NCBI RefSeq assembly: GCF_020521555.1
Contig: NZ_BPWA01000001.1
Span: 186,001 to 250,000, forward strand
Direction: 5' to 3'
Source of the DNA: Rodentibacter sp. JRC1
Lineage (GTDB): Bacteria > Pseudomonadota > Gammaproteobacteria > Enterobacterales > Pasteurellaceae
DNA length: 64,000 nt
This document shows positions 7,080 to 9,859 of the stretch, one piece after another. The stretch's first letter is position 1. Every line of letters begins with the position of its first letter. The notes beneath the pieces are model-generated. The model made no database searches and was not told the origin of the DNA. It was given only the letters and a program-made list of their open reading frames with translations. Position numbers and translations under genes: made by a program.

Positions 7080-7250
7080 TTATTTTGCTCTAAATTGTTT
7101 TATCAAATGACTTAAACTTGCACAATTTCGTTGAAAATTACGGCAATGCGGGCAGATAAGAAGATGTGATTTTACACCAATTTGTTCTTTTAACGTCAAA
7201 CGGCGTTCCTGTGATTCTGATAATTTCTGTGTAGTCTGCAAACAATTCAT
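7080..7250 (-). CDS. Predicted zinc-type anti-sigma factor (56 residues)
   Basis: The frame begins with ATG at 7250, eight bases after the sigma factor stop, and ends TAA at 7080-7082. The 56-residue product (MNCLQTTQKLSESQERR at the start) contains HLLICPHC, an H-x3-C-x2-C pattern as in ZAS/zf-HC2 anti-sigma factors, where the cysteines bind zinc and sense redox change. There is no membrane helix, so it should be cytosolic. Translational coupling to the sigma gene is likely. A longer frame overlapping it in another register has no such motif. By position and motif it holds the adjacent sigma factor inactive until stress, by analogy with redox-sensing RsrA/ChrR-like partners. Confidence 0.7.
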   Translation of the reverse strand: MNCLQTTQKLSESQERRLTLKEQIGVKSHLLICPHCRNFQRNCASLSHLIKQFRAK

Positions 7251-7258
7251 CGTTAATA

Positions 7259-7819
7259 TTATTCTCCCTCAAGCTTATTTGATAAACAATACTGTAATTG
7301 CAATCTTGCACGATAAAGTGAGGTATGTAAATTCGATACACTGATTGCGGCTTCCTTACAAATTTCGTCTGTCGATAACTCCAAATATTCACGCATCATA
7401 AATACTCTTGCTTGCCTTGCCGGTAAATGATTTAAACAAATTTCAAAGATCCGCCAAAATTCATCACAATACACTTCATTTTCATTTTGTTGTAAATCTT
7501 TCGGTTCATATTCACTTTTCCAATGTCCTTGTTCATCAAAAAATGAATTGTTCTTTTCGTCAATTAAATCACTTTCAAGAACAAAACGTTCTTTTATGCG
7601 CAAATAATCCAGAATTTTGTTTTTTAAAATAGCAAAAATCCATGTTTTTAGCGCAGATTGCCCTCTAAATACATTAATATTTTTTAATGCACTAACGAAA
7701 GCTTCTTGCACAAGATCTTCAGCTAAAAGAGGATCCCTTAATTGCAATTGGGCAAAACTTAACATTTGAGTGCGAATATCAAGCATCTCTTTTGATGAAA
7801 TAAGTTGTTCTATTTCCAT
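7259..7819 (-). CDS. rpoE2: ECF-type RNA polymerase sigma factor (RpoE2-like)
   Basis: This is an alternative sigma factor of 186 residues with sigma-70 region 2 (AEDLVQEAFVSALKNINVFR, then ALKTWIFAILKNKILDYLR, about residues 33-74) and region 4 (LPARQARVFMMREYLELSTD to HTSLYRARLQLQYCL, about 131-178). Region 3 is absent, as in all ECF sigmas. It closely resembles the H. influenzae protein studied as RpoE2, which responds to hypochlorite. The ribosome site before the ATG at 7819 is weak, and an internal ATG (MLDIRTQM) is possible. It is co-transcribed with the anti-sigma downstream and divergent from the methionine-rich protein and msrPQ, its probable targets. Confidence 0.88.
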   Translation of the reverse strand: MEIEQLISSKEMLDIRTQMLSFAQLQLRDPLLAEDLVQEAFVSALKNINVFRGQSALKTWIFAILKNKILDYLRIKERFVLESDLIDEKNNSFFDEQGHWKSEYEPKDLQQNENEVYCDEFWRIFEICLNHLPARQARVFMMREYLELSTDEICKEAAISVSNLHTSLYRARLQLQYCLSNKLEGE

Positions 7820-7871
7820 AAAATAAAAAAGTTTAAAAATTTTGTAAGAATTTCAGCTCTCAACCGACTAA

Positions 7872-7892
7872 TGTAACGAAAGATATTCTTTC
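7872..7892 (+). promoter_or_regulatory. Candidate sigma-factor promoter element with palindrome in the divergent region
   Basis: TGTAACG at 7872-7878 resembles the -35 element of several ECF sigma promoters. It is immediately followed by the perfect palindrome GAAAGATATTCTTTC (7878-7892). It lies 40-60 bases before the methionine-rich protein start and between the two divergent transcription units. A clear -10 partner cannot be chosen by eye. Confidence 0.35.
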
Positions 7893-7931
7893 TGTAAATT
7901 CACATTTAACAAAACACTCTAGGAGTAACAT

Positions 7932-8273
7932 ATGAAAACATTAAAATTTACAACACAAACTTTATTCGCCCTTTGTTTTGCCGGCAGTACCTACGCCGCT
8001 GATATGATGAAAGATTGTGATCAAACTATGGACGGGAATTGTATGAAAAAAATGGAACAGATGAAAGAAAATATGAAATCTGACAGTATGAAAAAAATGG
8101 AGCGGATGGAAGAAAATATGAAATCTGACAAGATGAAAAAAATGGAGCAGATGGAAGAAAATATGAAATCTGACAGTATGAAAAAAATGGAGCGGATGGA
8201 AGAAAATATGAAATCTAACAAGATGAAAAATATGCCGTCTGATAATTCAATGAAAAAAGATAAAATGATGTAA
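7932..8273 (+). CDS. Secreted methionine-rich repeat protein (MrpX-like oxidant scavenger)
   Basis: The 113-residue product has an N-terminal signal peptide (MKTLKFTTQTLFALCFAGST, cleavage after YA near residue 22). By my count the 91-residue mature chain holds 24 methionines, about a quarter of it, plus many Lys and Glu. Residues 38-97 are four copies of a 15-residue unit of the type MKKMEQMEENMKSDS. The chain is predicted to be a charged helix, without a catalytic domain. In Azospira a methionine-rich periplasmic peptide, MrpX, acts as a sacrificial sink for hypochlorite and is re-reduced by the neighbouring YedYZ pair; the gene order here is the same. AGGAGTAAC precedes the ATG. The function is inferred from composition and context. 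Confidence 0.82.
   Translation: MKTLKFTTQTLFALCFAGSTYAADMMKDCDQTMDGNCMKKMEQMKENMKSDSMKKMERMEENMKSDKMKKMEQMEENMKSDSMKKMERMEENMKSNKMKNMPSDNSMKKDKMM
8043..8222 (+). repeat. Four tandem 45-base coding repeats
   Basis: Units start at 8043, 8088, 8133 and 8178. Each encodes MKKME(Q/R)M(E/K)ENMKS(D/N)(S/K). Units 2 and 4, and units 1 and 3, are most alike, which suggests a 90-base duplication. The unit length is a multiple of three, so gain or loss keeps the reading frame. Confidence 0.9.
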
Positions 8274-8309
8274 TAACACCAAAGCAGCAGGGATGGATAG
8301 GAGTTAAAA

Positions 8310-9263
8310 ATGAAAAAATTAACCGAAAACGATATTACCCCAGAAAATCTTTTCTATCAACGTAGAAAAATCATTCAATCAATGGGAGTTCTCAGTGCCG
8401 CTGCTGCTTTTCCTTCCATCGGATTGAGCAAAACACACGACTCACGCACGGCATTATCCTTTAAAAAGGATAAAAACGATCAATTAACGCTTACCCCTGA
8501 AAATAAGGTAACAACCTATAACAATTTTTATGAGTTTGGCGTACCAAAAGAATCCCCTTCCCATTATGCGGATAGCTTAAAAATCGAGCCTTGGAAAGTA
8601 GAAATTACAGGTGAAGTCGAAAAGCCAATCGTATTAGATATGAATGATTTACTCACTCGTTTCCCTTTAGAAGAACGAATTTACCGTTTCCGTTGTGTTG
8701 AAGCATGGTCAATGGTGATCCCTTGGATTGGCTTTGAATTAAATAAACTCTTGGCCATCGTTAAACCAACGAGCCGGGCAAAATTCGTAGAATTTGAAAC
8801 GATTTATGATCCTGACAATATCCCGGGGCAAAAAAATAGCTTTTTTGGCGGGGGGTTAGAATATCCTTATAGAGAAGGTCTAACCCTTGCCGAAGCCATG
8901 CATCCTTTGACGCTGTTATCTGTCGGGTTATATGGCAAAACGCTATTGCCTCAAAACGGCGCGCCGGTGCGTTTGGTTGTGCCTTGGAAGTATGGTTTTA
9001 AAAGTATCAAATCCATTGCAAAAATCAAGCTCACATCGCAAATGCCACATACTACTTGGAACAAACTCGCGCCATACGAATATGGTTTCTATGCTAATGT
9101 AAATCCTCAAGTAGATCATCCTCGTTGGTCACAAGCCAGTGAACGGGTGATTGGTTCAGGCGGTTTATTTAATGTGAAACGTCAGCCGACATTACTTTTT
9201 AATGGTTACGCTGAACAAGTCGCGCATTTATATGATGGCTTAGATTTAAGGAAGAATTATTAA
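8310..9263 (+). CDS. msrP: Periplasmic methionine sulfoxide reductase catalytic subunit MsrP (YedY)
   Basis: This molybdopterin enzyme reduces protein-bound methionine sulfoxide in the periplasm. The N-terminus carries a twin-arginine signal (QRRKIIQSMGVLSAAAAFPS), as needed for export of the folded cofactor protein. The SUOX-type fold is visible, with the molybdenum-ligand cysteine in YRFRCVEAWSMVIPWIGFEL (Cys near residue 129) and downstream PVRLVVPWKYGFKSIKSI. At 317 residues it is slightly shorter than the E. coli enzyme. AGGAGTTAAAA precedes the ATG. It follows the methionine-rich protein by 36 bases and overlaps msrQ by one base (TAATG), so all three form one operon. Confidence 0.96.
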   Translation: MKKLTENDITPENLFYQRRKIIQSMGVLSAAAAFPSIGLSKTHDSRTALSFKKDKNDQLTLTPENKVTTYNNFYEFGVPKESPSHYADSLKIEPWKVEITGEVEKPIVLDMNDLLTRFPLEERIYRFRCVEAWSMVIPWIGFELNKLLAIVKPTSRAKFVEFETIYDPDNIPGQKNSFFGGGLEYPYREGLTLAEAMHPLTLLSVGLYGKTLLPQNGAPVRLVVPWKYGFKSIKSIAKIKLTSQMPHTTWNKLAPYEYGFYANVNPQVDHPRWSQASERVIGSGGLFNVKRQPTLLFNGYAEQVAHLYDGLDLRKNY

Positions 9264-9859
9264 TGCGATATTTATTATTACGCTTTTTTACACACATTAT
9301 TTGTGCCTCACCATTGATTTGGTTAAGTTGGCTCATTCTATCAGGTGATGAAACACAGTTGGGTGCAGAACCGAGTAAAACTATTCAACATTTTTTGGGA
9401 TTTACTGCAATTACTCTGCTGCTTGGCGTTTTTCTTTTTCGATTCGTGATTGAATTTACAAAATTAAATCAATTAAGAATCTTACATCGCACACTTGGAC
9501 TATGGGCGATATTTTACCTCTTTTTGCATATTCTCTCTTATTTTATATTAGAATTGGGGTATGATATTTCACTCTTTTATAGTGAACTTACTCAACGATA
9601 TTATTTAATACTAGGAGCCTTAAGTTTATTTATTTTATGTTTTATTACAATAAGTTACCTTCCATTTATCCGACATAAAATGAAAGCTCACTGGTTAACT
9701 TTACATAAACTGGCTTATCTTGCTCTTTTATTAGCCTGTATTCATTATCTTCTTTCAACAAAGAATATTGAAATTACAGCTATTATTTACTTGCTTCTCT
9801 GTTTAGGTACATTATTGATTATATGTTACCGAAAATATGTGGCCTTAAATAAAAAATAA
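9263..9859 (+). CDS. msrQ: Haem-binding membrane subunit MsrQ (YedZ)
   Basis: This inner membrane protein of 198 residues has about six hydrophobic spans and belongs to the ferric-reductase-like transmembrane family. It passes electrons from the quinone pool or a flavin reductase to MsrP. Histidines in spans (LHRTLGLWAIFYLFLHILSY and LHKLAYLALLLACIHYLL) are the expected haem ligands. The start codon overlaps the msrP stop. A hairpin terminator follows about 80 bases downstream and closes the operon. Confidence 0.95.
   Translation: MRYLLLRFFTHIICASPLIWLSWLILSGDETQLGAEPSKTIQHFLGFTAITLLLGVFLFRFVIEFTKLNQLRILHRTLGLWAIFYLFLHILSYFILELGYDISLFYSELTQRYYLILGALSLFILCFITISYLPFIRHKMKAHWLTLHKLAYLALLLACIHYLLSTKNIEITAIIYLLLCLGTLLIICYRKYVALNKK

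What the first reader, a model, noticed from the sequence alone, without database searches (positions are those of the whole stretch)
7080..9859. ECF sigma/anti-sigma pair facing a methionine-rich scavenger and MsrPQ: a self-contained hypochlorite-defence module
Five genes form two divergent units: a sigma factor with a tiny zinc-type anti-sigma, and a secreted methionine-rich repeat protein with MsrP and MsrQ. Read directly: the gene order, the H-x3-C-x2-C motif, the signal peptides, the twin-arginine signal and about 26% methionine in the mature repeat protein. Known: in Azospira a SigF/NrsF system controls MrpX and YedYZ, and the Haemophilus RpoE2 sigma answers hypochlorite. Inferred: here oxidant attacks the zinc centre of the anti-sigma, the sigma is freed, the repeat protein soaks up HOCl and MsrPQ recycles it. 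I know of no description of this exact arrangement in Pasteurellaceae, but I cannot search.
Basis: partly seen in the sequence, partly recalled or inferred. Interest (0 to 1): 0.75.

Follow-up and report, generated by a model that had tools for sequence, protein, structure and literature searches.

The report
Bleach-defence gene switch with swappable parts
A bacterium of the Haemophilus/Pasteurella family carries a gene switch that probably senses bleach-like oxidants and turns on a methionine-rich decoy protein plus an enzyme that could regenerate it; relatives keep the switch and its promoter but swap the protective genes, and a Haemophilus influenzae genome examined here has lost the decoy.

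Summary
The five genes are real and correctly placed. The sigma/anti-sigma pair is the ortholog of H. influenzae RpoE2/HrsE (69% and 57% identity), already tied to hypochlorite. New here: (1) The Met-rich gene's leader holds TGTAAG-N16-CGWCTAA. In H. influenzae HI-5290 the only two perfect matches precede msrAB and hvf/DoxX, loci that others found RpoE2-dependent. The window's genome also has two: this operon and a prophage-borne PEBP gene. (2) A divergent Met-rich gene faces the sigma at 38 of 112 family loci; only 5 also have msrPQ there. Other loci hold msrPQ alone (27), msrAB (6), or a DUF417 or DUF2282 gene (1 each). (3) The reductase is swapped: of 33 genomes with the Met-rich gene and no linked msrPQ, 30 carry full-length MsrAB and no MsrP, 3 neither; the 5 five-gene genomes carry MsrP and no full-length MsrAB. 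(4) In HI-5290 only a remnant of the Met-rich gene is left. (5) Met-rich leaders share a hairpin. HOCl/Met-oxidation defence is the best reading, copper defence the main rival. Zinc switch, scavenging and recycling are inferred; nothing was measured in this organism. New variant of a known kind.

The parts
7080..7250 (-). Zinc-type (ZAS) anti-sigma factor, HrsE ortholog, C3-x25-H29-x3-C33-x2-C36
   Evidence: (57% identity to H. influenzae HI-5290)
7259..7819 (-). ECF sigma factor, RpoE2 ortholog
   Evidence: (69% identity to H. influenzae HI-5290)
7843..7871 (+). Predicted RpoE2-type promoter TGTAAG-N16-CGACTAA, ending 60 bp before the Met-rich gene
   Evidence: perfect match, one of two in the genome; conserved in relatives; same motif before H. 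influenzae msrAB and hvf
7878..7892 (+). Inverted repeat GAAAGA-TAT-TCTTTC just after the -10: possible 5' mRNA hairpin or operator; not significant in this sequence alone
   Evidence: p 0.305 alone; z -0.07
7932..8273 (+). Secreted methionine-rich repeat protein (MrpX-like by composition and context); signal peptide about 7932-7997 by eye; N-terminal C-x7-C pair
8041..8234 (+). 45-bp tandem repeat (4.3 copies; 90-bp super-repeat)
8310..9263 (+). MsrP, periplasmic Mo methionine sulfoxide reductase; twin-arginine signal by eye
9263..9859 (+). MsrQ, haem membrane partner, one-base overlap with msrP
6930..6956 (-). Terminator-like hairpin with T run downstream of the sigma/anti-sigma operon (tentative: 2 such sites found, 1.9 expected in shuffles)

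Best explanation
This is the RpoE2/HrsE envelope-oxidant regulon of a Pasteurellaceae bacterium. Proposed working: a cytoplasmic zinc anti-sigma (HrsE type) holds the RpoE2 sigma; an oxidant (most likely HOCl or its chloramines) disrupts the Cys/His zinc site and frees the sigma; RpoE2 reads TGTAAG-N16-CGACTAA at 7843-7871 and transcribes mrpX-msrP-msrQ; the Sec-exported Met-rich repeat protein takes oxidant hits in the periplasm and MsrPQ, fed from the quinone pool, reduces its Met sulfoxide. In relatives the same promoter type drives other envelope repair genes, and MsrAB takes the place of MsrPQ. Shown here by sequence: gene identities, orthology, promoter motif and its recurrence, reductase exchange. 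Inferred: inducer, zinc switch, promoter use, scavenging, recycling.
For: Sigma and anti-sigma are RpoE2/HrsE orthologs. In H. influenzae, HOCl raises rpoE2 expression, HrsE blocks RpoE2, RpoE2 activates msrAB and is needed for HOCl induction of the DoxX cluster (PMC7907618; abstract, found passages, sections 24, 29, 30). The motif, drawn from mrpX/msrP leaders, has two perfect sites in H. influenzae HI-5290: msrAB and hvf/DoxX. It lies 71-73 bp before the unlinked msrP of 4 of 6 genomes of group g36 (Pasteurella oralis and kin). It is within 1 mismatch at 35 of 38 loci with a divergent Met-rich gene; on the opposite strand 0 of 112 loci have 2 mismatches or fewer. Perfect sites family-wide: 159 in 140 genomes against 52 for the reversed control. 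MsrPQ/MsrAB exchange. No MsrA-family match in the window's genome. Brucella BcrXQP is a tested functional parallel (PMC8315932 passages).
Against: Nothing was measured in this organism. The pattern was drawn by eye from the leaders it then scores, so only the msrAB, hvf, unlinked msrPQ and PEBP sites are independent tests. 25 of 79 perfect sites read look like chance or coding matches. The pattern does not account for dmt and mtsZ, also linked to RpoE2 in PMC7907618: HI-5290's two perfect sites are spoken for (whether that strain has dmt and mtsZ was not checked), and in H. haemolyticus L037 no site within 3 mismatches faces the dmt-like gene. The H. influenzae rpoE2 mutant had wild-type oxidant resistance in vitro (PMC7907618 abstract). 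The Met-rich protein has no database homolog at E <= 0.001 and misses the MxKDx cut-off (18.8 against 41). Three of 33 Met-rich-gene genomes without linked msrPQ have neither MsrP nor full MsrAB. Directly divergent msrPQ loci match weakly: 5 of 27 within 1 mismatch, 8 of 27 with nothing within 3. Other periplasmic reductases (MtsZ, DmsABC) were not searched for.
Confidence: 0.7

Rival explanations
1. Copper (or mixed copper/thiol) defence: the sigma mainly answers metal stress, and the Met-rich protein is a periplasmic Cu(I) buffer rather than an oxidant decoy; MsrPQ repairs copper-driven oxidation.
For: The same motif precedes hvf, whose HvfA product becomes a copper-binding peptide (PMC13419390 passages). 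A DUF2282 gene, nearest to a bufferin model but below its cut-off, occupies the divergent slot in L250. Met-rich repeats, an N-terminal Cys pair in 15 of 38 proteins and a Met/His repeat in L200 would suit Cu(I) binding. Sigma and NrsF genes are found in some bufferin clusters of other bacteria (PMC12452194 passages).
Against: RpoE2 in H. influenzae was tied to HOCl and H2O2 (PMC7907618). Other slot genes (msrAB, msrPQ) are oxidant repair genes. The Cys pair is missing in 23 of 38.
Confidence: 0.2
2. The Met-rich protein is not a scavenger: its Met content reflects repeat expansion and it does another job, with MsrPQ only repairing ordinary envelope proteins.
For: The repeat is regular at DNA level; repeat number and sequence vary widely; no family match above cut-off and no homolog found.
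Against: High Met (18-34% after the first 22 residues) is kept across dissimilar repeat sequences in many genera behind a conserved promoter motif; the 5 five-gene genomes and 30 of 33 others keep MsrP or full MsrAB.
Confidence: 0.08
3. The module answers general thiol/peroxide stress rather than hypochlorite in particular.
For: The anti-sigma has the ZAS spacing of redox anti-sigmas (C/H-X23-26-H-X3-C-X2-C, PMC7907618 section 24); H. influenzae rpoE2 also rises with H2O2 and paraquat (section 30).
Against: The outputs are aimed at Met oxidation, which HOCl causes far better than H2O2 (chemistry, recalled).
Confidence: 0.3

Closest known systems
Haemophilus influenzae RpoE2/HrsE (Nasreen 2021, PMC7907618)
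   Same: Orthologous sigma and zinc anti-sigma; same motif before its targets msrAB and hvf/DoxX in HI-5290
   Different: HI-5290 keeps only a remnant of the Met-rich gene and has no MsrP match; its known output is MsrAB; the term 'methionine-rich' is not in the paper's main text
Brucella BcrS-AbcS-BcrXQP (PMC8315932, passages)
   Same: ECF sigma/anti-sigma next to a Met-rich peptide plus MsrPQ-type operon; HOCl-induced and contributing to HOCl resistance
   Different: AbcS is a six-helix NrsF-family anti-sigma (ECF16), not a small zinc protein; different -10 element; repeat protein without shown homology
Azospira SigF-NrsF-MrpX-YedYZ (Melnyk 2015, not held; seen through passages of PMC4623255 and PMC8315932)
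   Same: Met-rich periplasmic scavenger with YedYZ (=MsrPQ) and an ECF sigma system
   Different: NrsF anti-sigma; no NrsF match in the window's genome
E. coli HprSR-msrPQ (PMC10151825 passage)
   Same: MsrPQ raised by HOCl
   Different: Two-component control; a Met-rich partner protein is not mentioned in the passage

Membership tests
RpoE2 (H. influenzae type ECF sigma) | Sequence orthology to H. influenzae RpoE2 | tested here: met
   69% identity in tblastn; 297 bits against cut-off 264 for NF009182; the genome's only other hit is 29% identical
RpoE2 (H. influenzae type ECF sigma) | Recognises the promoter type of msrAB/hvf | tested here: inconclusive
   Perfect shared motif; binding not measured
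ZAS anti-sigma (HrsE type) | C/H-X23-26-H-X3-C-X2-C motif | tested here: met
   C3-x25-H29-x3-C33-x2-C36; H-x3-C-x2-C with C 26 residues before the H in 110 of 111 extracted anti-sigmas, the exception being a 7-residue fragment; one of 112 sigma places gave none
ZAS anti-sigma (HrsE type) | Zinc binding and oxidant release of sigma | not testable with these tools
   needs biochemistry
SigF/NrsF (ECF16) system | NrsF-type multi-helix membrane anti-sigma | tested here: not met
   Anti-sigma is 56 aa with zf-HC2; no PF06532 match in the genome, control rings in 1 of 14
MrpX / penta_MxKDx (TIGR02953) | Score above family cut-off | tested here: not met
   18.8 bits against 41
MrpX-like scavenger (working sense) | Secreted, over 20% Met, in one operon with MsrPQ beside an ECF sigma | tested here: met
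   26% Met, signal peptide by eye, gene order; operon by spacing only
MrpX-like scavenger (working sense) | Scavenges HOCl and is reduced by MsrPQ | not testable with these tools
   needs biochemistry
MsrPQ | MsrP catalytic subunit | tested here: met
   NF003767 486 bits against 207
MsrPQ | MsrQ haem subunit | tested here: inconclusive
   NF003831 115.5 below cut-off 130, but right place, length and Ferric_reduct domain 52.2 against 28

The most novel reading that the evidence does not exclude
RpoE2/HrsE is a family-wide 'socket' for defence against neutrophil oxidants, into which lineages plug interchangeable effectors: a Met decoy, either of two Met-sulfoxide reductases, copper-binding peptides, an RclC-like protein and, in the window's own genome, a prophage-carried YbhB/YbcL-family PEBP lipoprotein. 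If that PEBP acts like uropathogenic E. coli YbcL, a phage gene would be switched on by the host cell's own bleach and would dampen neutrophil entry. A leader hairpin on the decoy mRNA would add a further, unknown layer of control.
Probability: 0.25. Interest if true: 0.8.

Novelty: new variant of a known kind. Interest (0 to 1): 0.6.

Why it matters
It joins two bodies of work: RpoE2/MsrAB in H. influenzae and MrpX/MsrPQ in Azospira and Brucella. The same scavenger-plus-reductase logic appears under a small zinc anti-sigma instead of a membrane NrsF, and the reductase looks exchangeable. It gives a concrete promoter pattern that can be tested across a family of animal and human pathogens, and it suggests that the studied species lost one of the regulon's outputs, which may bear on the mild in vitro phenotype of its rpoE2 mutant.

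Tried and rejected
Met-rich protein homology search: 45 candidates, none at E <= 0.001. PDB sequence search with the anti-sigma: no match up to E 1. Sigma-70 promoter scan of 6900-10150: 6 sites against 13.4 expected, not informative. A decayed Met-rich gene in G098 (L194) between sigma and msrP: none seen in three frames, so that locus is counted as msrPQ without Met-rich gene. A Met-rich remnant further upstream of H. influenzae rpoE2 (L033 7200-7700): not convincing. Idea that the Met-rich gene and MsrPQ are a fixed pair: rejected. Idea that the sigma gene is driven by its own motif: no site within 2 mismatches on that strand at any of 112 loci. MAFFT alignment of the hairpins shifted their centres and was not used; pairs were counted centre-aligned. 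Two loci (L225, L227) that the script put in class X were moved by me to the co-directional class after reading. Two of the 33 class-X genes (L161, L162) look truncated but are counted. Single-leader hairpin tests are mostly not significant: p < 0.05 in 14 of 37 class X and XP leaders tested; window p 0.305, window RNA fold z -0.07. The L155 fold (z -2.05) took in the promoter and is not used.

Chance matches of the motif exist: 159 perfect matches in 140 genomes against 52 for the reversed control; in the 104 genomes with the sigma 140 against 43, in the 36 without it 19 against 9, 13 of the 19 in group g6. At up to 2 mismatches the window's genome has fewer matches (80) than the reversed control (153), so weak matches mean nothing.
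Full report
WHAT IS THERE. The window is bases 186001-250000 of contig 1 of a 2.39-Mb, two-contig genome rated 100% complete; its genus code also covers a handle with the contig length of Rodentibacter ratti F75. The minus-strand pair is an ECF sigma (7259-7819) and a 56-residue anti-sigma (7080-7250). The plus-strand unit is a secreted Met-rich repeat protein (7932-8273), MsrP (8310-9263) and MsrQ (9263-9859). 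Family assignments are; MsrQ scores below its NCBIfam cut-off but has the right domain and place. The Met-rich protein scores 18.8 bits against a cut-off of 41 for the MxKDx family and finds no homolog at E <= 0.001, so it is 'MrpX-like' by composition and context only. Its repeat unit is 45 bp with a 90-bp super-repeat.

SIGMA AND ANTI-SIGMA. By tblastn the sigma is 69% and the anti-sigma 57% identical to those of H. influenzae HI-5290. The H. influenzae pair is known: HrsE is a 67-residue ZAS anti-sigma that blocks RpoE2, and RpoE2 activates msrAB and is needed for HOCl induction of a DoxX cluster (PMC7907618: outline with abstract, found passages, sections 24, 29, 30). The window's anti-sigma has C-x25-H-x3-C-x2-C. 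The same spacing is in 110 of 111 anti-sigmas that the script extracted; the exception is a 7-residue fragment, and one of 112 sigma places gave none. No NrsF match is in the genome, so the regulator differs in kind from Azospira SigF/NrsF and Brucella BcrS/AbcS.

HOW COMMON. At E <= 1e-20 the sigma is in 104 of 140 family genomes held, at 112 places; MsrP is in 55 of 140. I examined all 112 places by script and in part by eye. After moving two misfiled loci, a Met-rich gene lies divergent from the sigma without msrPQ at 33, with msrPQ at 5 (G000, G116, G040, G045, G046), msrPQ lies there without a Met-rich gene at 27, a Met-rich gene lies upstream in the same direction at 8 (one of them matching Aggregatibacter kilianii), and 39 have neither. 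I read the leaders of 19 of these 39: msrAB is divergent at six (L189, L192, L195, L196, L201, L203), a DUF417 gene at one (L230) and a DUF2282 gene at one (L250). NCBIfam gives RclC as the nearest model for the DUF417 protein of L230 (178 bits, cut-off 275) and a bufferin model for the DUF2282 protein (22.8, cut-off 60); both are below cut-off, and the DUF417 protein of L341 is much weaker (38 bits).

PROMOTER. The divergent leaders share TGTAAG-N16-CGWCTAA reading toward the effector gene: 27 of 38 Met-rich loci match perfectly and 8 more with one mismatch. The three misses are two truncated genes (L161, L162) and one H. haemolyticus locus with a decayed promoter (L154). On the other strand no locus has two mismatches or fewer. 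Directly divergent msrPQ loci are weaker: 3 of 27 perfect, 2 with one, 11 with two, 3 with three, 8 none. Because the pattern was drawn from these leaders, the fair tests are elsewhere. In H. influenzae HI-5290 there are two perfect matches in the genome: one ends 39 bp before msrAB, the other lies before the hvf operon, whose first gene scores as HvfX and second as HvfA. These correspond to two loci that others found RpoE2-dependent, in another strain (Hi2019). In group g36 (Pasteurella oralis and kin), where msrPQ is not beside the sigma, 4 of 6 genomes (G106, G108, G110, G111) have a perfect match 71-73 bp before msrP. I read 79 perfect sites (30 loci delivered by the tool, 42 sites in 40 stretches I chose, and 7 read for their targets): 54 lie before msrAB (22), hvf/DoxX (11), Met-rich genes (5), a small Met-containing peptide (3), DUF417 (5), thioredoxin-like (2), PEBP (2) or msrPQ (4); 25 look like chance or coding matches. 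Targets were named from their printed first residues; representatives were checked with Pfam or NCBIfam. This is not an unbiased sample. Family-wide there are 159 perfect matches against 52 for the reversed control. The pattern does not account for dmt and mtsZ, which the H. influenzae paper also links to RpoE2.

THE WINDOW'S OWN REGULON. Its genome has two perfect matches: 7843-7871, and one 47 bp before a PEBP lipoprotein gene (G000:C1:1168646-1168674). Neighbours of that gene score as phage head closure, tail sheath and tail fibre proteins. The genome has no PF01625 (MsrA) match, though 12 of 14 control genomes do, and no MsrAB match. MtsZ and DmsABC were not searched for. So 'self-contained' is nearly right.

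SWAPPED REDUCTASES. Across 140 genomes, MsrP and full-length MsrAB (at least 300 of 353 query residues, read off) avoid each other: 5 have both, 50 only MsrP, 63 only MsrAB, 22 neither (Fisher p 6.6e-15, ignoring kinship). Of 33 genomes with a divergent Met-rich gene and no linked msrPQ, 30 have MsrAB only and 3 (G012, G069, G080) neither; the 5 five-gene genomes have MsrP only (G116 has a shorter MsrA-like match with stops as well); the 8 co-directional genomes have MsrAB only. The scavenger therefore seems able to work with either reductase, if it is recycled at all.

HISTORY. In the MsrP tree (48 rows, from the loci held; 55 genomes have MsrP) the five-gene MsrPs, L194 and the six unlinked g36 MsrPs form one group (SH-aLRT 98), apart from the other 26 directly divergent ones. 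In the sigma tree (111 of 112 rows; L196, outside the length limits, was dropped) the window has no firm neighbour; G085 is nearest by path. In the H. influenzae/haemolyticus group (6 loci: L146, L147, L152, L154, L158, L159) no site within 3 mismatches is left in the leader, and in 5 of 6 the Met-rich gene is gone after its first few codons, while its start and ribosome site remain.

LEADER HAIRPIN. Of 31 distinct leaders with a recognisable promoter (one of them, L151, before a broken Met-rich gene), 28 have a stem of at least 6 pairs (G-T allowed) beginning 3-8 nt after the -10 (shuffles: mean 2.6, maximum 8). Centre-aligned, 15 leaders pair in 128 of 135 cells against 85 in shuffles (maximum 101), with at least two Watson-Crick pair types at each of nine positions; these 15 were chosen for having the stem, so the count leans upward, and the leaders are related. 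It may be a 5' mRNA stem or a DNA operator. Among other targets, 8 of 19 msrAB and 5 of 10 hvf leaders have some such stem under looser limits, 0 of 4 msrPQ. In the window it is a modest 6-pair stem, not significant alone.

MECHANISM. Shown by sequence: orthology, ZAS motif, promoter pattern, co-occurrence, reductase exchange. From published work: RpoE2 answers HOCl; MsrPQ repairs Met sulfoxide in the periplasm; Met-rich peptide plus MsrPQ-type operons serve HOCl defence in Azospira and Brucella (passages). Inferred: promoter use here, zinc-site attack, scavenging, recycling. Copper is the main rival because the same motif also precedes hvf, whose product binds copper, and a bufferin-like gene takes the slot once.

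LITERATURE. Searches that returned no account of this locus, judged by listings and by found passages in the papers named: (open-licence PMC only; two searches returned nothing). The original Azospira paper is not held, and most subscription journals are outside the library.

Noticed in passing
G000:C1:1168646-1168674 (-); L281 4485-5099 (-): A YbhB/YbcL-family PEBP lipoprotein gene sits among tail sheath and tail fibre genes of a prophage with a perfect RpoE2-type motif 47 bp upstream; G098 has another PEBP gene with a perfect motif (L338). A review says that UPEC YbcL suppresses neutrophil migration (PMC8793217 passage).
   Followed up: partly
L146, L147, L152, L158, L159 (H. influenzae/haemolyticus group): Remnant of the Met-rich gene: start codon and ribosome site kept, gene body gone, promoter decayed.
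   Followed up: yes
window 7878-7892 and 27 other distinct leaders: Inverted repeat just after the -10 of Met-rich gene promoters, with varied pairs.
   Followed up: partly
L171, L174 (G061, G067): Two sigma genes about 4 kb apart; one copy has a divergent Met-rich neighbour, the other has none.
   Followed up: no
L142 and L200: The Met-rich protein carries a lipobox by eye, so it may be membrane-anchored; in L200 the repeat is Met/His-rich (KMHDNM), which looks copper-like.
   Followed up: no
window 6116-6141 (-): Rfam L25 ribosomal protein leader; ordinary.
   Followed up: no
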